Source: Phycisphaerae bacterium (lineage in GTDB: Bacteria > Planctomycetota > Phycisphaerae > Phycisphaerales > SM1A02). Taken from it: 64,000 bases of DNA. The stretch spans positions 26,681-90,680 of the forward strand of contig VGXN01000001.1 in NCBI GenBank assembly GCA_016873335.1. Direction: 5' to 3'. The notes below the pieces were generated by a model. It saw only the letters and a list, made by a program, of their open reading frames with translations. It did not search any database and had not been told where the DNA came from. Positions 49,440 through 61,445 of the stretch are shown one piece after another. Position 1 is the stretch's first letter; every line of letters begins with the position of its first letter. The position numbers were made by a program, and so were the translations under genes.

Positions 49440-49712
49440 ATGGCGCGTGCCGTTGTTGATCCCGCGGAGCTTCGGCGATTTGCAGCGGAACTCCGCAAGT
49501 TCAATCTTGACATGCAGGGTGGCATCGCGACGATTCATGCGCGTCTCAACACGCTGCAGCAGACATGGCGCGATCAGGAGCAGCAGAAGTTCGCGGAGGA
49601 GTTTGAGGAGACGATCAAGGTATTGCAGCGGCTGCTGAAGGCGAGCGAAGAACACATCCCCTTCCTGCTTCGCAAGGCGGACCGCATTGACGAGTACTTG
49701 CAGCAACGCTGA
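49440..49712 (+). CDS. WXG100-like small helical protein
   Basis: 90 aa, helix-turn-helix hairpin pattern with 'ARLNTLQQTWRDQEQQKFAEEFEETIKVLQRLL' at the turn (W-R-D in place of W-x-G); directly upstream of an FtsK/SpoIIIE ATPase operon. Confidence 0.7.
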   Translation: MARAVVDPAELRRFAAELRKFNLDMQGGIATIHARLNTLQQTWRDQEQQKFAEEFEETIKVLQRLLKASEEHIPFLLRKADRIDEYLQQR

Positions 49713-49720
49713 AGCACCCC

Positions 49721-50314
49721 GTGGATTCCGGCGCCAACATCCGCGATACCAAGGCGATTCTGGATGCGAAGGCAGTGATCGTGAAGGCTGCGCGCAGCAT
49801 GGCATCGGTCCTCGAGGAGTCGCAGGCGGATTCGGAACGGTTTGCGATGTGGCTGTCGGGGGAAGCACAAGCTGGGTGGGAACGACAGGTGCGTCTGCGC
49901 ACCACGCGGCTCAATGAGGCGCGGTCTGAACTCATGCGGAAGCAGATGCAGCCAACAGCGGATGGTCGGCCGCCATCAACAGTCGATGAACGAAAGGCGG
50001 TCTCTCGCGCCGAGGCAGCGCTCGCCTCTGCAGAGGATCGCTTGCGGCGGACTCGGCACTGGGTCATGGAGTACCAACGGGTCTTGGCAAACTTCCGCGC
50101 GGGGATGGGGTCACTCGGGACATTCGTCGATCAGGTTGCGCCATCGTCGGTTGCCGCGCTCAACAGGATGGCGGAATCGGTCGATGCCTATCTCGCGGCG
50201 CAGGCTTCTCCGATTGTCGACACATCCACCAGCGATGTCACGCCGAAGGACGCGGCAACATCGATGCGCCGATCAGGCAGCGATCACCCGGACGCCGATG
50301 GAGCGCATTCATGA
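49721..50314 (+). CDS. Helical coiled-coil protein of unknown function in the WXG/FtsK cassette
   Basis: 197 aa, GTG start; 'SVLEESQADSERFAMWLSGEAQAGWERQVRLRTTRLNEARSELM...AVSRAEAALASAEDRLRRTRHWVMEYQRVLANFRAGM'. Confidence 0.7.
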   Translation: MDSGANIRDTKAILDAKAVIVKAARSMASVLEESQADSERFAMWLSGEAQAGWERQVRLRTTRLNEARSELMRKQMQPTADGRPPSTVDERKAVSRAEAALASAEDRLRRTRHWVMEYQRVLANFRAGMGSLGTFVDQVAPSSVAALNRMAESVDAYLAAQASPIVDTSTSDVTPKDAATSMRRSGSDHPDADGAHS

Positions 50315-50538
50315 GCGACTCCTCTCACAAGGCAAAGTTGAAGGATGCGGTGCGTACCCTGCAGGCACAGTGGAGTGTCATTCGAAGCCAATGGAACGAT
50401 GCGCAGAGCGACCGTGTGCAGCATGAGGTGGTCGCGCGCGCCGAAGAGTCCGTGCGTCTTGCGGTTCTGGCGCTTGACCAGCTCGGCGAGGCGATCGCGC
50501 GAGCCCGCAGCGACTGCAGTGAGGGCGGTGGCATGTGA
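50311..50538 (+). CDS. Small (75 aa) helical protein in the WXG/FtsK cassette
   Basis: 'KLKDAVRTLQAQWSVIRSQWNDAQSDRVQHEVVARAEESVRLAVLALDQLGEAIARARSDC'; ATGA overlap upstream, overlap with the next gene downstream. Confidence 0.65.
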   Translation: MSDSSHKAKLKDAVRTLQAQWSVIRSQWNDAQSDRVQHEVVARAEESVRLAVLALDQLGEAIARARSDCSEGGGM

Positions 50539-53500
50539 CTGAGCATGCTGCCGCGACATCCATGGCAACCCCTGCTGCAGATGTGGGACAGCGCCCACTC
50601 TCTGAAGTGGCGAACGAGGTGGCTTCGCTCATCGTTTCGGCTCCCGCGGCACGCCTCGAGGCAGAGGCTGCGCTCGCGGCATTCGTTCAGTCTGTCGAGC
50701 CGCCTGAGCAAGCTCGGCATGGGACGGAGTTGAAGCGACTTGAGGCAGCACGTGAGAAGGTCTGTGGAGAAGTGGATGCCAAGGCGTCTGCGGCTCTGGC
50801 GCAGGCAACGCAGCGACATGCCGCGAACACAGCCAAGATCGATGACGAAGAGCGACGCACACTGGAACGCGCGGAGGATCAACTGGAGTCTGAAATCGAC
50901 GGACTGCAGCAACGCATGGACGAGAAGATCTGGACGGCCGACTCGATCTATGAGGAGCAGGAGCCGTCCTTTCTGAAGGAGCACGAGGAGCGAACGAAGC
51001 AGTTGCAAACGACCTATGACGGTGCGTGCACGACACTCATCCGAGCTCGTGATCTGCTCGGACGGGCGCGCGCGATTCCCACTGCGGTTTCGGATCTTGC
51101 TGCGCCAGTTCTTGGAGTTGATCCGATGTCTGACTTCACACTCGAGGCGTCCGCTGCAGAAGAGCTGCTTGGTCGCATTCGTCGCATGTCGCTCGCGCTC
51201 ATTCTTCGCAACAAGATTTCACAAGCGGCGTGCTTCTTCGTGGTCTTGCTGCTGTCGGTTGGCGCGGTGACATTCACTGTGGGATGGGCAGACTCGACGG
51301 GACCGATGGTCGTTGCGGGCGCGCTTGTTCTTGCCGTGATCATGCAAGTGGTCGTCTTTGTGTCCGCTGGGCGTGCCCTGCGCACCACCGCTCAGGAAGT
51401 GTCTCGACGTGAGGCGCATCTCGCCCAACTGCTCGCTGCGGTGATGCACTGGAGCGATGTCACACGAGTTCGTTTGACAGAAGCAGCGACGGTTCGACAT
51501 CAAAGGGAGGTCGGGAGCGTTCGCGCGAGCCTTGCCGAGCGGCGTGAGGCGTTGCAATCGCAGTTGCCGCAGCGGCTCGAGCGTGTGAAGGCGGCGGCGG
51601 CTGAACTTCGCGCGAAGAACGACGGTCAACTCCAGCAGATTCAAACCAGTGCCGCCAAATCGGTTCAAGATCTGATGGAACAGATCGATGCTCGGCATGC
51701 GACGGCGCTCCAGCGCGAGAGTGATCGCCACACTGCCCGAACCCGTGAGATCGCGGCGGTTGTCGAAGCGCGTCGCACTGCGCTGCGCAGCGAATGGCAC
51801 ACGGCACAGGCGCAAGTGGTCCGAGACCTGCAGTGGATCGGCGACCTTGAGCGCCGACAGTTCCTGCCGTGGAGCGATCCCACATGGGAGCGCTTTGATG
51901 GCTCTGCCGAGCCGCGGACTGCGATCAGCCTCGGACACGTCACCATCTCGCTCCATGGGATCAAGGGTGCACTCCCAGTTGCACCCGACTTGGCGTGGCC
52001 CGCAGGCACGCCGCGCATCGTTCATGTGCCTGTGACACTCTCCGTTCCGACACAGGCATCTCTGCTGATTGAGGCGGGTATGGAGGGGCGTGAAGCGGGC
52101 GTTGCTCTGCTGCAGGAGTCGATGCTTCGGCTCCTCACCATGCTGCCGCCCGGCAAGGCGCGATTCACGATCTTCGATCCTGTTGGGCTTGGGGAGAGTT
52201 TCGCTGCCTTCATGCATTTGAGCGATGATGCGGAGCATCTGGTGGGCGAGCGCATCTGGACGGATCAGCGGCAGATGGAGCAGCGCCTGACCGATCTCTG
52301 TGAGCACATGGAGACGGTCATCCAGAAGTTCCTGCGGAACGAGTACTCGGATCTCGCCGCGTACAACCGCCAGGCTGGTGAACTCGCAGAGCCCTATCGC
52401 TTTCTCGTGATGGCTGATTTCCCGGCAGGTCTGAACGAGAGCGCGCTTCGGCGACTCAACAGTGTCATCACAAGCGGCGCTCGGTGCGGTGTCTTCACGC
52501 TTCTGCTGCACGACACGCGGCAGACCGTTCCGAGCGACTTGGACCTGCGTGATCTGCGGGCACGCGCACTGAACTTGGTGTGGAAGTCTGAGCGGTTTGT
52601 CGTGGCAGGCACACCGCTCGAGCCCTTCCCATTCACCGCCGGATCGCCGCCCGCGAATGACCGAGCGACTGCACTGTTGAAGCGCATCGCGGCCTCGGCG
52701 AAGCGCGCCAAGCGCGTTGAAGTTCCCTTCTCGGTGATCGCGCCCCAGCCGGCACGGCGTTGGTCCGAGACCACCAATGAATCGATCACTGTTCCGCTTG
52801 GTCGTTCGGGAGCCACGCGCCTTCAGTCGCTCGCACTTGGATTCGGTACCAGTCAGCACGCACTCATTGCTGGCAAGACAGGATCGGGCAAGTCAACGCT
52901 GTTGCATGCGCTGATCACGAACCTTGCGCTACGGTTTTCTCCCGATCAGGCCGAGGTCTGGCTGATCGACTTCAAGAAGGGTGTCGAGTTTCGCACCTAC
53001 GCATCGCACGGTCTCCCCCACGCGCGCGTGGTCGCGGTGGAGAGCGACCGCGAGTTCGGGCTTTCGGTCCTGCGCGGGCTTGATGCCGAACTGCGGCGAC
53101 GCGGGGATCTGTTTCGTGGAATCGGCGTTCAGGATCTTGCTGGATTCCGCCGTGGAAAGCCGGCCGAGCGGATGCCGCGAACCCTGCTGATTGTCGACGA
53201 GTTCCAGGAACTGTTCACGGAAGACGATAAGGTCTCCGAGGAGTCCGCTCTCTTGCTTGACCGACTCGTCCGACAGGGTCGCGCGTTTGGCATCCATGTG
53301 GTACTCGGCTCGCAGACGCTTGGCGGCGCGTACTCGATTGCGCGGGCAACGATGGGACAGATGGGTGTTCGTATCGCGCTTCAGTGCAACGAGGCTGATT
53401 CGCAGTTGATCCTTGCCGATGACAATGTCGCGGCGCGGTTGTTGGCCCGTCCTGGAGAGGCGATCTACAACGATGCAGGCGGTCTGGTCGAGGGAAACAA

Positions 53501-54452
53501 TCCCTTCCAAGTCGTTTGGCTTGCCGATGCGGATCGTGATCGCCTGCTCTCTGAAGTGCGCGCTCTTGAGAAGTCGCATGCCTGCGCGTCCCGTCCTCCG
53601 ATGATCGTGTTTGAGGGCAGTGCGCCTGCACTGCTTGAGGCCAACGCCATGCTGCAGGCAGCAGCGACGCGGCGAGGGCGCGAGGTGGTGCTCGCGCCAA
53701 GGCTGTGGCTCGGGGATGCTGTTGCCATTCAGGATCCAACGTGTGTTCCACTGCGTCGGCAGTCTGGCAGCAATCTGATGGTGATCGGGCAACGGGAAGA
53801 TGCGTCCGCTGGAGTGGTGGCAGCGGCGCTTGTTTCAATGGCCGCGCAGTGCGGATCGAATGCACGGGTCGTGTTGCTCGATGGAACGCCCGTCGACGAT
53901 GCGGCGTACGACACGCTCGCCGGACTCCGCCGCGAACTCGGGCTGCTCGGGGACAGCGGCGGATTCCGTGACGCGGATGCGCTCATCACTCAGGTGGCTG
54001 AAGAGGTTCGCCGCCGTGCCGCGACGGGAGAGTCGAAGCGCGAGCCCATCCTGCTTGTCGTCCACAGTCTGCACCGGTTCCGTTCCCTGCGGCGGAACGA
54101 GGATGACTACGGCTTTGGCTCTGGCGGCGCGGCAGCAGTCAGTGGCGACAAGTTGCTCGCGGAGATCCTTCGCGACGGTCCGACCGTTGGCGTTCATGTG
54201 CTTGTGACGGTGGATAGTGCGACCAATCTGGCGCGTTCCATCGATCGGAACGCGCTGCGTGAGTTTTCGTGGCGGGCGCTCTTCCAAGTGAGCGCGACCG
54301 ACTCGAGCACACTCATCGACTCCCCCGCCGCGAGCAAACTTGGTCCGCAGCGCGCGCTGTTGCATCAGGAGGACGCAGGTACGCAAGAGAAGTTTCGACC
54401 GTATGCGTTCCCCACGGGATCTTGGCTCGCCGGCTTCGCAGAACGCCCTTGA
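50535..54452 (+). CDS. FtsK/SpoIIIE-domain membrane ATPase (type VII secretion EccC/EssC-like)
   Basis: Walker A 'LIAGKTGSGKSTLLHALITNLALRFSPDQAEVWLIDFKKGVEFRTYASHGLPHARVVAVESDREFGLSVLRGLDAEL', Walker B 'TLLIVDEFQELF', 'GRAFGIHVVLGSQTL', 'ALQCNEADSQLIL', 'RPGEAIYNDAGG'; two TM helices at about 51200-51370. Confidence 0.9.
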   Translation: MTEHAAATSMATPAADVGQRPLSEVANEVASLIVSAPAARLEAEAALAAFVQSVEPPEQARHGTELKRLEAAREKVCGEVDAKASAALAQATQRHAANTAKIDDEERRTLERAEDQLESEIDGLQQRMDEKIWTADSIYEEQEPSFLKEHEERTKQLQTTYDGACTTLIRARDLLGRARAIPTAVSDLAAPVLGVDPMSDFTLEASAAEELLGRIRRMSLALILRNKISQAACFFVVLLLSVGAVTFTVGWADSTGPMVVAGALVLAVIMQVVVFVSAGRALRTTAQEVSRREAHLAQLLAAVMHWSDVTRVRLTEAATVRHQREVGSVRASLAERREALQSQLPQRLERVKAAAAELRAKNDGQLQQIQTSAAKSVQDLMEQIDARHATALQRESDRHTARTREIAAVVEARRTALRSEWHTAQAQVVRDLQWIGDLERRQFLPWSDPTWERFDGSAEPRTAISLGHVTISLHGIKGALPVAPDLAWPAGTPRIVHVPVTLSVPTQASLLIEAGMEGREAGVALLQESMLRLLTMLPPGKARFTIFDPVGLGESFAAFMHLSDDAEHLVGERIWTDQRQMEQRLTDLCEHMETVIQKFLRNEYSDLAAYNRQAGELAEPYRFLVMADFPAGLNESALRRLNSVITSGARCGVFTLLLHDTRQTVPSDLDLRDLRARALNLVWKSERFVVAGTPLEPFPFTAGSPPANDRATALLKRIAASAKRAKRVEVPFSVIAPQPARRWSETTNESITVPLGRSGATRLQSLALGFGTSQHALIAGKTGSGKSTLLHALITNLALRFSPDQAEVWLIDFKKGVEFRTYASHGLPHARVVAVESDREFGLSVLRGLDAELRRRGDLFRGIGVQDLAGFRRGKPAERMPRTLLIVDEFQELFTEDDKVSEESALLLDRLVRQGRAFGIHVVLGSQTLGGAYSIARATMGQMGVRIALQCNEADSQLILADDNVAARLLARPGEAIYNDAGGLVEGNNPFQVVWLADADRDRLLSEVRALEKSHACASRPPMIVFEGSAPALLEANAMLQAAATRRGREVVLAPRLWLGDAVAIQDPTCVPLRRQSGSNLMVIGQREDASAGVVAAALVSMAAQCGSNARVVLLDGTPVDDAAYDTLAGLRRELGLLGDSGGFRDADALITQVAEEVRRRAATGESKREPILLVVHSLHRFRSLRRNEDDYGFGSGGAAAVSGDKLLAEILRDGPTVGVHVLVTVDSATNLARSIDRNALREFSWRALFQVSATDSSTLIDSPAASKLGPQRALLHQEDAGTQEKFRPYAFPTGSWLAGFAERP

Positions 54453-58332: not shown

Positions 58333-59421
58333 TCACTGGTCGGTCGGGCGCATGACTCGGAAGCCGATCATGCCGTGCGCGAACCCTGTTGGCGCCTCGC
58401 CGCGAGCAGAGATTCGGCATGAATCTGCGTCATAGCCGCAGCCACCTCCGCGGATCGGACGGTATCCACCCGTCGTTGGTCCCGTTGGGTCGAGCACGGG
58501 GCTGTAGGAGTAGTAGTCCGCCGCGTAACGGTCGCGCACCCACTCCCACACATTCCCCGTCATGTCATGCAGTCCGAAGCCGTTGGCAAGCTTCCCGCCA
58601 CCGACCTGCGTCCCGTAGAACGGATCGCCAGGAACCGTGTTGTACCAAGCGATGCTCGGCAGAATCGATGGGTCGTCAGAGCCTGCGGGCTGCGCTGCAC
58701 TTCCGTGGTAGGTCGTCGTGGTGCCCGCACGCGCCGCGTACTCCCACTGCGCTTCGGTGGGCAACTTCATTCCCGTGGCAGCGAGAAATCCTTGGATGTT
58801 CGTCCACGTCACCCAGTCAACGGGTCGGTCGATCGAACCCGGGAAACTCGGCGGCTGGAAGTAGCTCGGGTTGTAGTTCATTTGCGCGACCCACTGCGCT
58901 TGAGTGACTTCGAAGCGCCCCATGTAGAAACTGCTGCTGAGCGTCACAGGATGGAGCGGGTACTCGTCGGCGTAGCAGCCGGTGGTCGTTGGACAGCCCA
59001 TCATGAAGTCGCCGCCTGGGATCAGCAGCATTTCCATCTGCGTGAAACTGTCTCGAACTCGCCACGCGAAACCGGACTGCGCAATCGCCTGCCGGATCGC
59101 GGGGTCGTAGATGACGGCCGGATCTGGTGCCGCCTCGATGAGCGTTGCCCAATCGGGAACTGTGACGCAACTGCCCCAACTTCCAAGCAGAAGGGTGAGA
59201 TCGCTCCCGTTGACGGTTCCATCGTTGTTGAGATCGGCGCTGTGCTGCCCCTGCCCATCGCTGCCCCACGCCGACAGCACCAGGCTGAGATCGGTGCCGC
59301 TGACGGCGTTGTCGCCGTCGACATCGCCTGGGCAATCCGCACGTGCCACCGTGCCAAGAAGCGTTGTTGCGCTCAGCGCAGCGAGAAAGCGATGCAGTGG
59401 TGGACGGATGCGGCAGTCCAT
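58333..59421 (-). CDS. Secreted SUMF1/formylglycine-generating-enzyme-fold protein with N-terminal dockerin-like repeats
   Basis: Signal peptide; 'DCPGDVDGDNAVSGTDLSLVLSAWGSDGQGQHSADLNNDGTVNGSDLTLLLGSWGSC'; then 'EMLLIPGGDFMMGCP', 'VTQAQWVAQM', 'LPTEAQWEYAARAGTTT', 'MTGNVWEWVRDRY', 'IRGGGCGYDADSCRISAR', 'GFRVMR'. Confidence 0.9.
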   Translation of the reverse strand: MDCRIRPPLHRFLAALSATTLLGTVARADCPGDVDGDNAVSGTDLSLVLSAWGSDGQGQHSADLNNDGTVNGSDLTLLLGSWGSCVTVPDWATLIEAAPDPAVIYDPAIRQAIAQSGFAWRVRDSFTQMEMLLIPGGDFMMGCPTTTGCYADEYPLHPVTLSSSFYMGRFEVTQAQWVAQMNYNPSYFQPPSFPGSIDRPVDWVTWTNIQGFLAATGMKLPTEAQWEYAARAGTTTTYHGSAAQPAGSDDPSILPSIAWYNTVPGDPFYGTQVGGGKLANGFGLHDMTGNVWEWVRDRYAADYYSYSPVLDPTGPTTGGYRPIRGGGCGYDADSCRISARGEAPTGFAHGMIGFRVMRPTDQ

Positions 59422-59573
59422 GCGTAAAAACTAACGCGAAATCCATGAAGTGCAAGGGCAACAGCTGCTGTTTCCATTCATTTCAAAGTCGAAACCCAGG
59501 GAGCACGAAGCCCCGCCGCGGTATCGTGCTGAAGCGTTCGTTCACCCGCCCCCTCCAGCCTCCACCGAACAAG

Positions 59574-61445
59574 ATGCCCCGATTCTGCACGACTCCGCGA
59601 ATACTGTGCGCCACGCTGCTCTTGGCTGCAGTCGGTGGCTGCTCCAACATCGAGAGAGCGGATCCGACCATCGCGCCGAAACGGGCTGAACGCCCGCCGA
59701 TTCCACTGGATGTCGATCCGATCATGCGTGGAACCGTTGCGAGCGAAACGGTCGTGGTTGGCTATCAGCCAGTCATCGTGCGGGGGTACGGCTTTGTGGT
59801 CGGACTGAATGGAACGGGCAGTCGCACCGCCCCTGCCGAGGTGCGGCAGTACATCTTGCGCGAAATGCTGCGGTATGGCGTGGGCGAGCAGAGCGAGGGA
59901 CTCGGGAACATGCAGCCGGAACAGTTGCTGAACTCCGAGGACACCGCCATCGTGATCGTCGAGGGAGTTGTTCCCGCTGGCGCACCAAAGGGTACGGCAT
60001 TCGATGTGCGGGTGTACGCCTCGCCCGGCACGAGCACCACCAGTCTGGAGGGCGGGACGCTCTGGACAACCGGTCTGCGACCTGGCGTGCTGCTCGTCGG
60101 CAGCCGCGAGGTGCGCGCGGTCGCGGAGGCGAAGGGACCGATCATCGTCAATCCGTTTGCGGATGATTCCGACCGCGCGCAGTCGCTGGTCAACCAACTC
60201 AGCGGCAGAGTCCTCAACGGCGGCAAGACCCTGAAGTCGCTGCCCGTGAAGTTGGTGATGGCCACTCCGAGCCATTCGCGTGCGCGGCTCATCGCGAGCG
60301 CCATCAATTCGAACTTCCCGCGTGAGCCGCGTCAGCGTGGCGATACTGCGCAAGGAAGAACGGGGGAACTGATCACGGTGGACGTTCCGCCATCGTGGCA
60401 CTCGCGCAGCGAAGAGTTTGTCCAAATGCTTCGGCACACATCGATCAACGTTGGTCCGATCGATGCGACTGCTTCGGAGATTGCGCGGGCGGTCGTGAAC
60501 AATCCTGGCGGCGCGCAGGCGGCAAGCATGCGGTGGCAGGCCCTTGGACGGAAGAGCCTCACCTCGATTCGTCCGCTGTATGACTATCCCGAAGAGCAGC
60601 CACGCTTCGCCGCTTTGCAGGCGGGTGCGCGCTTGGATGATCCGCTTGTCGTGCCCCCACTGCTCGCCATGGCAAAGTCTGGAAGCGCCGAACTTCGTGC
60701 GCCGGCCATCCGTCTGCTGGAGCGGATGAGCATCAATCCTGTCATCGACCTCGGGCTGCGCCCGCTCCTTGAGGACAGTGATATTGACATTCGACTGGCT
60801 GCGTATGAGGCCCTCCGAAAGCGCGGCGATCCGATCGTCTCGAGCAGCATGGTCGACGAGAAGTTCCGACTCGATGTGGTGCCGAGCCAGCATCCGATGG
60901 TGTATGTGTCCCAGTCAGGGAAGCCATCGATCGCCGTGTTTGGAACCGACCAGATGCTGAAGGTTCCGATGAGCCTGCGGGCATGGGATGGCAACTTGCT
61001 GATCAAGGTCGATTCGGGCGAGGACTTTGCCACGGTCTTTTTTCGCCCGGCATCTGGCGTGCAAGCTCGGGTGGACAAGTCTTCGCTCAAACTGCATGAA
61101 TTGATTCGGTTCCTTGGGCATACCAAGACGGGCGACCGTCCGGCCCCAGGTGTTGGAATGACCTACAGCCAGACGATCGGCGCGATCTATGCCTTGTCCT
61201 CCGAAGGGGCGATTCCTGCGGCCTTCAAGGTGGAGCAGGACCGAATCATCGCTGCGATTGCGAAGGCCGGTCAAGAGGCGGAGCGGACCGATCGGCCCGA
61301 GTTCATCGAAGACGAGGAGGTCACCTCCGACCAGCCCGCGGCTGCGGCGGCGATGGTGCCTGGGCTGACGCCGACCGAGGGCGTTCCAGCAGGTGGTGGA
61401 AAACCCGCGAAGAGTGATGCAAAATCGGGTACTGTGCCGAGGTGA
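59574..61445 (+). CDS. FlgI-like (flagellar P-ring domain) lipoprotein with HEAT-like repeat region
   Basis: Lipobox-like 'LLLAAVGGCSN'; 'VVGYQPVIVRGYGFVVGLNGTGSRTAPAEVRQYILREML', 'EDTAIVIVEGVVPAGAPKGTAFDVRVYASPGTSTTSLEGGTLWTTGLR'; 'VVPPLLAMAKSGSAELRAPAIRLLERMS...PLLEDSDIDIRLAAYEALRKRGDP'. Start at MPRFCTT. Confidence 0.82.
   Translation: MPRFCTTPRILCATLLLAAVGGCSNIERADPTIAPKRAERPPIPLDVDPIMRGTVASETVVVGYQPVIVRGYGFVVGLNGTGSRTAPAEVRQYILREMLRYGVGEQSEGLGNMQPEQLLNSEDTAIVIVEGVVPAGAPKGTAFDVRVYASPGTSTTSLEGGTLWTTGLRPGVLLVGSREVRAVAEAKGPIIVNPFADDSDRAQSLVNQLSGRVLNGGKTLKSLPVKLVMATPSHSRARLIASAINSNFPREPRQRGDTAQGRTGELITVDVPPSWHSRSEEFVQMLRHTSINVGPIDATASEIARAVVNNPGGAQAASMRWQALGRKSLTSIRPLYDYPEEQPRFAALQAGARLDDPLVVPPLLAMAKSGSAELRAPAIRLLERMSINPVIDLGLRPLLEDSDIDIRLAAYEALRKRGDPIVSSSMVDEKFRLDVVPSQHPMVYVSQSGKPSIAVFGTDQMLKVPMSLRAWDGNLLIKVDSGEDFATVFFRPASGVQARVDKSSLKLHELIRFLGHTKTGDRPAPGVGMTYSQTIGAIYALSSEGAIPAAFKVEQDRIIAAIAKAGQEAERTDRPEFIEDEEVTSDQPAAAAAMVPGLTPTEGVPAGGGKPAKSDAKSGTVPR

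What the first reader, a model, noticed from the sequence alone, without database searches (positions are those of the whole stretch)
49440..54452. Compact WXG100-like / FtsK-SpoIIIE cassette: candidate minimal type VII secretion-like system
Seen directly: four consecutive plus-strand genes (90 aa, 197 aa, 75 aa, 1305 aa), the last three joined by stop/start overlaps (50311-50314, 50535-50538) and the first two 8 nt apart. The first protein has the size and helical-hairpin pattern of WXG100 substrates with TWRDQEQQKF at the turn. The last is a membrane FtsK/SpoIIIE ATPase. Established: WXG100 proteins next to FtsK/SpoIIIE ATPases define ESX/T7SS (EccC/EssC). Inference: no EccB, EccD, EccE, mycosin, EsaA, EssA or EssB homologue is visible in the flanks (aldehyde dehydrogenase, tRNA, acyltransferase). 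If functional, this would be a pared-down export system with two unfamiliar small helical partners.
Basis: partly seen in the sequence, partly recalled or inferred. Interest (0 to 1): 0.78.

Follow-up and report, generated by a model that had tools for sequence, protein, structure and literature searches.

The report
Stand-alone WXG100 and ATPase module
A four-gene set in a planctomycete bacterium encodes a membrane motor built like the type VII protein-secretion motor plus three small helical partners; the same four genes are kept as a set in part of the phylum even when scattered over the chromosome, so it is probably a real, minimal and little-studied protein-export machine.

Summary
Gene 1 (90 aa) is a WXG100-fold protein (Pfam E 5e-9), but its turn is W-x-D, not W-x-G. 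Gene 3 is a second, shorter W-x-D protein. Gene 2 is predicted to be one long helical hairpin with a floppy tail. Gene 4 is a membrane ATPase with three tandem FtsK-fold domains, only the middle one with an intact P-loop; its best structural match is the cytoplasmic part of EccC. About 13% of sampled Planctomycetota genomes carry the set. WXG100 and ATPase genes co-occur almost perfectly (38 of 40 genomes with either), even when unlinked; one closed genome keeps all four genes at four separate places. By sequence the ATPase belongs neither with EccC/EssC nor with FtsK, but in a third clade with plasmid modules of Caballeronia, Helicobacter, Rhodococcus and Deinococcus; H. pylori HP0062 is gene 1's nearest solved relative. 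That kind was noted before as a WXG100/FtsK operon of TerY-P/CoCoNuT loci. No YukC, YukD or TerD was found in the genome. Best reading: a stand-alone, membrane-anchored minimal type VII-like export machine. Transport itself is inferred, not shown.

The parts
49440..49712 (+). Gene 1: 90-aa WXG100-fold protein with W-R-D turn and invariant C-terminal Tyr (EYLQQR)
   Evidence: Pfam WXG100 E 5.3e-9, 36.7 bits, cut-off 27.3; profile matches H. pylori HP0062 (3fx7) E 3e-10 and EsxB 4j42 E 1e-8; 40 of 40 phylum members W-x-D
49721..50314 (+). Gene 2: 197-aa long helical hairpin with disordered tail
   Evidence: AlphaFold2 helices 11-76 and 88-162, block pLDDT mostly 93-99 there; conserved W44, W53, Y157; no Pfam family
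50311..50538 (+). Gene 3: 75-aa short W-x-D helical protein, WXG100-like
   Evidence: Weak WXG100 match E 0.0021; W28-x-D30 in 47 of 47 homologues; aligns with gene 1 over the turn only, probability low
50535..54452 (+). Gene 4: 1305-aa membrane FtsK/SpoIIIE-type ATPase, EccC-like tandem architecture
   Evidence: FtsK_SpoIIIE 5e-27; EccCb, EccCa and EssC models 111, 109 and 99 bits, all below their cut-offs, against 40 bits for FtsK; Foldseek best hit EccC 4nh0 E 2.5e-32
51198..51344 (+). Transmembrane hairpin of gene 4 (residues about 222-270) between two helix-rich stretches
   Evidence: Hydropathy; at least two such segments in 58 of 64 planctomycete homologues
51921..52706 (+). Gene 4 first FtsK-fold domain (about residues 463-724), no P-loop (FTIFDPVGLG)
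   Evidence: AF2 model, alignment A1; boundaries approximate
52752..53549 (+). Gene 4 central domain (residues 740-1005), the only one with Walker A (GKTGSGKST 780-788) and Walker B (VDEFQE)
   Evidence: Key Walker residues invariant or nearly so in 17 and in 53 homologues
53682..54404 (+). Gene 4 third FtsK-fold domain (about residues 1050-1290), degenerate P-loop (VIGQREDAS)
   Evidence: Central-domain profile matches it weakly, down to iE 3e-9 in homologues and 8e-5 in the window protein; AF2; boundaries approximate

Best explanation
A stand-alone, membrane-anchored minimal type VII-like protein-translocation machine. Gene 4 would form a hexameric ring at the inner membrane; its central domain hydrolyses ATP, and the two dead FtsK-fold domains would regulate it or receive substrate. 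Gene 1 (probably a dimer, as in HP0062) would be the conserved adaptor or co-substrate that docks on the ATPase through its W-x-D turn and C-terminal Tyr helix. Genes 2 and 3 would be partners moved with it; the long hairpin of gene 2 would be the cargo or cargo carrier, since the protein in that position in relatives of other phyla can carry a nuclease domain. Shown: homology, domain architecture, invariant catalytic residues, co-occurrence. Inferred: hexamer, docking, transport, direction.
For: WXG100 fold of gene 1. ATPase core aligns with the whole EccC cytoplasmic domain, E 2.5e-32, while FtsK aligns well over one domain only. Walker A/B conserved in the middle domain only. In a phylum sample 38 genomes have both gene 1 and ATPase, and one genome has each alone. 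Closed genomes keep all four genes, single copy, though scattered: G133 at four places, G061 at three, G177 and G299 at two. Similar sets lie on plasmids of four other phyla: Caballeronia WXG - coiled coil - 113 aa - 76 aa - FtsK; Helicobacter WXG - HNH nuclease - SUKH - 77 aa - FtsK. TM hairpin.
Against: No secretion experiment. Gene 1 is the most conserved of the four (mean column identity 66%, against 56% ATPase core, 38% gene 3, 26% gene 2), unlike a typical secreted effector. Relatives have only one clear WXG100 protein per genome, so no family of WXG substrates is visible. No outer-membrane or channel part is known for these diderm cells. YxxxD/E is absent. Two-TM ATPases without EccB/D or EssB analogues have not been shown to form a channel. 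Gene 2 resembles the proteins in that position clearly only in Rhodococcus (25.7 bits) and Deinococcus (19.5); in Helicobacter only by position.
Confidence: 0.58

Rival explanations
1. A cytoplasmic or membrane-face assembly machine that is not a secretion system: the ATPase remodels or positions the WXG100/hairpin proteins inside the cell (stress response or envelope organisation) without moving anything across the membrane.
For: Gene 1 more conserved than a usual secreted protein; relatives in Caballeronia and Deinococcus show no TM segment; TerY-P/CoCoNuT contexts are intracellular stress or defence systems (PMC11090510); scattered, single-copy genes in closed genomes look like housekeeping.
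Against: Planctomycete ATPases are membrane-anchored (58 of 64) and EccC-like in fold; a plasmid relative pairs a nuclease with a SUKH-type immunity protein, as exported toxins do.
Confidence: 0.22
2. An anti-phage or stress defence module of the TerY-P/CoCoNuT kind whose cargo acts on nucleic acid, with the window copy a stripped-down stand-alone version.
For: Same three-domain ATPase with only the middle domain active and two WXG100-like proteins as described in PMC11090510; Caballeronia homologue sits in such a locus (VWA, PP2C, STK, CARF); Rhodococcus homologue beside TerD.
Against: No PADLOC hit for genes 1-3 and only general ATPase hits for gene 4; no TerD in the genome; flanks are housekeeping genes; no nuclease domain found on gene 2 in the window; kept as a full set when scattered, unlike mobile defence islands.
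Confidence: 0.12
3. A DNA translocase of the FtsK/HerA type with incidental small helical neighbours.
For: Superfamily membership; FtsK structures match the central domain.
Against: A separate FtsK-like gene exists in the genome; no FtsK gamma domain in the Pfam scan; grouping with FtsK alone rejected (p-AU 0.015); co-occurrence with gene 1.
Confidence: 0.05

Closest known systems
WXG100/FtsK-like operon of TerY-P triads and Type III-A CoCoNuTs (PMC11090510, citing Anantharaman 2012)
   Same: Three ATPase domains with only the central one active, N-terminal helical extension, two WXG100-like small proteins, a third helical protein (there fused to a nuclease), and a stated stand-alone form
   Different: Here a TM hairpin, no TerY/kinase/phosphatase/VWA/CARF genes in the flanks, no nuclease domain on gene 2, chromosomal, in Planctomycetota
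H. pylori HP0062 (3fx7) and HP0066, called a minimal type VII set (PMC4978471, PMC3397514)
   Same: WRD turn, about 90 aa, A8 profile scores HP0062 50 bits (reversed control 10.5); FtsK gene in the same cluster per those papers
   Different: HP0066 was not available for comparison; the plasmid Helicobacter ATPase is shorter (823 aa) and lacks the N-terminal region with the TM hairpin
ESX / T7SSa EccC and T7SSb EssC
   Same: Tandem FtsK-fold domains on a membrane-anchored ATPase working with WXG100 proteins
   Different: Only one active domain, third clade, no FHA, no EssB/YukD, W-x-D instead of W-x-G, no YxxxD/E
FtsK/SpoIIIE DNA translocases
   Same: Fold of the central domain
   Different: No gamma domain, extra degenerate domains, different clade, WXG100 partner

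Membership tests
WXG100/ESAT-6 (gene 1) | About 100-aa protein scoring above the Pfam WXG100 cut-off | tested here: met
   36.7 bits against 27.3; matches solved WXG100 structures
WXG100/ESAT-6 (gene 1) | Literal W-x-G in the turn | tested here: not met
   W-x-D in 40 of 40; HP0062 and the plasmid relatives also W-x-D
WXG100/ESAT-6 (gene 3) | Pfam WXG100 above cut-off | tested here: not met
   18.7 bits, E 0.0021
ESX / T7SSa | C-terminal YxxxD/E secretion motif on the WXG100 protein | tested here: not met
   Ends EYLxQR in most members; position +4 from the invariant Tyr is not acidic
ESX / T7SSa | EccB | tested here: inconclusive
   None in 11 genomes, but no positive control rang
ESX / T7SSa | EccE, mycosin protease | not tested
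   Only the immediate flanks were identified
ESX / T7SSa and T7SSb | EccC/EssC tandem FtsK-fold ATPase | tested here: met
   Foldseek EccC 4nh0 E 2.5e-32 over 958 columns
ESX / T7SSa and T7SSb | ATPase within the EccC/EssC clade and above NCBIfam cut-offs | tested here: not met
   Own clade, support 95/94 to 99/94; below all cut-offs
T7SSb | EssC N-terminal FHA domains | tested here: not met
   No FHA in Pfam scan
T7SSb | EssB/YukC and EsaB/YukD | tested here: not met
   Absent in own genome and 10 relatives; controls rang in B. subtilis
T7SSb | EsaA, EssA | not tested
   -
TerY-P/CoCoNuT WXG100-FtsK operon | Three FtsK-fold domains, only the middle active | tested here: met
TerY-P/CoCoNuT WXG100-FtsK operon | Two WXG100-like small proteins | tested here: met
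   Genes 1 and 3, both W-x-D; gene 3 is weak by profile
TerY-P/CoCoNuT WXG100-FtsK operon | N-terminal coiled coil on the ATPase | tested here: inconclusive
   Long amphipathic helix signal only (apolipoprotein-like match 279-422); no coiled-coil predictor run
TerY-P/CoCoNuT WXG100-FtsK operon | No transmembrane segment | tested here: not met
   TM hairpin
TerY-P/CoCoNuT WXG100-FtsK operon | Linked TerY/VWA, kinase, PP2C, nuclease genes or TerD | tested here: not met
   Housekeeping flanks; no TerD in genome
FtsK DNA translocase | C-terminal gamma domain and FtsK clade | tested here: not met
   No gamma domain; grouping rejected p 0.015
Any secretion system | Demonstrated export of a substrate | not testable with these tools
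   -

The most novel reading that the evidence does not exclude
A third lineage of type VII-like secretion (a 'W-x-D' lineage) found in mostly diderm phyla, in which one three-domain, singly active ATPase and two W-x-D hairpin proteins plus a long-hairpin carrier suffice for export, without EccB/D/E, EssA/B or EsaA. Planctomycetota carry its membrane-anchored, non-toxin form as a conserved function.
Probability: 0.38. Interest if true: 0.78.

Novelty: new variant of a known kind. Interest (0 to 1): 0.57.

Why it matters
Type VII secretion is studied almost only in Gram-positive bacteria and mycobacteria, and what the smallest working machine is remains open. This set offers four genes, held together by co-occurrence even when unlinked, in diderm bacteria, and it ties the orphan H. 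pylori protein HP0062 to a wider lineage. A motif-based survey that required W-x-G (PMC3935865) could not have found it.

Tried and rejected
Foldseek with the gene 2 model gave nothing below E 0.001: a two-helix hairpin matches everything weakly. Profile comparison of gene 3 with gene 1 aligned the W-x-D turn but with low probability. ATPase loci without upstream gene 1 (L075, L080, L090, L105, L107, L112, L114, L122) were first taken for another subfamily with other partners; where upstream genes could be read they look like housekeeping genes (transketolase, GNAT, topoisomerase), and all but one of those genomes have gene 1 elsewhere, so they are split modules. An apparent WXG100 fusion in L034 was rejected on reading the sequence: it looks like a signal-peptide peptidase joined by a short match. 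Literature searches for WXG100 plus Planctomycetes found nothing on this set; Anantharaman 2012 and Sutcliffe 2011 are not held. A promoter/terminator scan was no better than chance.
Full report
OBSERVATION. The four plus-strand genes are present at the stated coordinates with the stated overlaps. Gene 1 matches Pfam WXG100 above its cut-off; gene 4 matches FtsK/SpoIIIE; gene 3 matches WXG100 weakly; gene 2 matches nothing of note. NCBIfam ranks EccCb, EccCa and EssC (111, 109, 99 bits) far above FtsK (40 bits), but all below their cut-offs. The genome has a separate FtsK-like gene elsewhere (G000:C66).

CONSERVATION. In relatives the order gene 1 - gene 2 - gene 3 - ATPase recurs in nearly every complete locus of the family and order (a few small genes were missed by my simple gene caller), while flanks (RpoD, aldehyde dehydrogenase, FlgI-like) differ beyond the genus. 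A scan of 84,980 named species genomes returned the best 80 loci, nearly all labelled Planctomycetota (Phycisphaerales, Pirellulales, Gemmatales, Isosphaeraceae, Sedimentisphaerales), most with the same four-gene order. In relatives there is one WXG100 protein above the Pfam cut-off per genome; it lies at this locus, and genomes of the order without the ATPase have none.

CO-OCCURRENCE. In about 290 genomes sampled across the phylum, gene 1 occurs in 39 and the ATPase in 39, with 38 in common. The hypergeometric probability is about 4e-45, without correction for relatedness. The two exceptions, G214 and G233, are fragmented drafts. In 12 of the 38 the two genes are not linked; some of these may be contig breaks, but four are one-contig genomes: G133 has the four genes at 0.23, 0.71, 1.94 and 2.66 Mb, G061 at three places, G177 and G299 at two. 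The genes thus stay as a set without operon linkage, which argues that all four work together. One genome, G120, has genes 1 and 4 but no detectable gene 2 or 3.

THE ATPASE. AlphaFold2 of residues 425-1305 with 53 homologues gave pLDDT 89.6, pTM 0.77. Foldseek puts EccC (4nh0, E 2.5e-32, aligned along the whole model), then EccC and EssC domains 2-3, ahead of FtsK, which aligns well over one domain. Global TM-scores to EccC are low (0.38), so the arrangement of domains differs or is uncertain. Walker A and B are conserved in the central domain only. A hydrophobic hairpin near residues 222-270 is found in 58 of 64 planctomycete homologues. A tree of central domains shows three groups: EccC/EssC, FtsK, and this lineage (support 95/94 to 99/94); holding it with FtsK alone is rejected (p 0.015). 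The tree is unrooted and has long branches, so which of the two is nearer stays open.

THE SMALL PROTEINS. Gene 1 has W-x-D in 40 of 40 phylum members, nearly always exactly 90 residues, and an invariant Tyr near the C-terminus; the YxxxD/E motif is absent. Its profile's best solved relative is H. pylori HP0062 (E 3e-10), then EsxB. Gene 3 has W-x-D in 47 of 47. Gene 2 is predicted as two helices of about 65-75 residues with a disordered tail. Four homologues (341-359 aa) carry an extra C-terminal domain: Imm33-like by Pfam in L076 (1.4e-14) and L089 (6e-8), weak in L129 and L135. Conservation runs gene 1 > ATPase core > gene 3 > gene 2 (66, 56, 38, 26% mean column identity).

OTHER PHYLA. Translated search of plasmids and phage records found the same ATPase lineage in two Rhodococcus, Caballeronia, Helicobacter and Deinococcus plasmids, and one faecal contig (158-282 bits with the central-domain profile against 62-98 for the best domains of EccC, EssC and FtsK). 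The Caballeronia set is VWA - WXG100 (89 aa) - coiled coil (436 aa) - 113 aa - 76 aa - ATPase - CARF - VWA - PP2C - kinase. The Helicobacter set is WXG100-like (89 aa) - HNH/colicin-type nuclease (340 aa) - SUKH protein - 77 aa - ATPase. The gene 1 profile scores 80, 52, 46 and 30 bits in Caballeronia, Helicobacter, Rhodococcus and Deinococcus, reversed controls at most 10.5. Gene 2 is matched clearly only in Rhodococcus and Deinococcus. The equation of gene 2 with the nuclease carrier in Helicobacter rests on position alone.

KNOWN OR NEW. PMC4978471 calls HP0062 and HP0066 a minimal type VII set. The window module is therefore a new variant of a noted but little-studied kind: stand-alone, with a TM hairpin, without nuclease or signalling genes, and kept as a four-gene set in part of a phylum. 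I found no paper on it in Planctomycetota in the library searched.

VERDICT. Real, conserved, and most likely a minimal type VII-like translocation machine (0.58). Architecture and co-occurrence are shown; transport, substrate and direction are inferred.

Noticed in passing
L076:6410-7474, L089:4884-5963, L129:6338-7363, L135:6309-7352: Gene 2 homologues with an extra C-terminal domain that Pfam calls Imm33-like (strong in L076 and L089, weak in the other two). Why an immunity-type domain should sit on a core part of this set is unexplained.
   Followed up: partly
L174:5152-9554 (Helicobacter sp. NHP19-012 plasmid): WXG100-like, HNH/colicin-type nuclease, SUKH protein, 77-aa protein and FtsK-type ATPase in a row: looks like a toxin-immunity pair inside a minimal WXG100/ATPase module, possibly the plasmid cousin of H. 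pylori HP0062-HP0066.
   Followed up: partly
L177:6358-7371 (faecal 'Bacteriophage sp.' contig MT836827): A gene-3-like W-N-D N-terminus (15 bits) fused to a protein with a HELGH zinc-peptidase-like motif, next to a relative of the ATPase.
   Followed up: no
window 59526-61445: A FlgI-like (flagellar P-ring) domain fused to HEAT repeats (639 aa); its homologues are a recurring downstream neighbour in the genus.
   Followed up: no
window 58333-59421: Formylglycine-generating (FGE-sulfatase) domain with an N-terminal dockerin type I domain.
   Followed up: no
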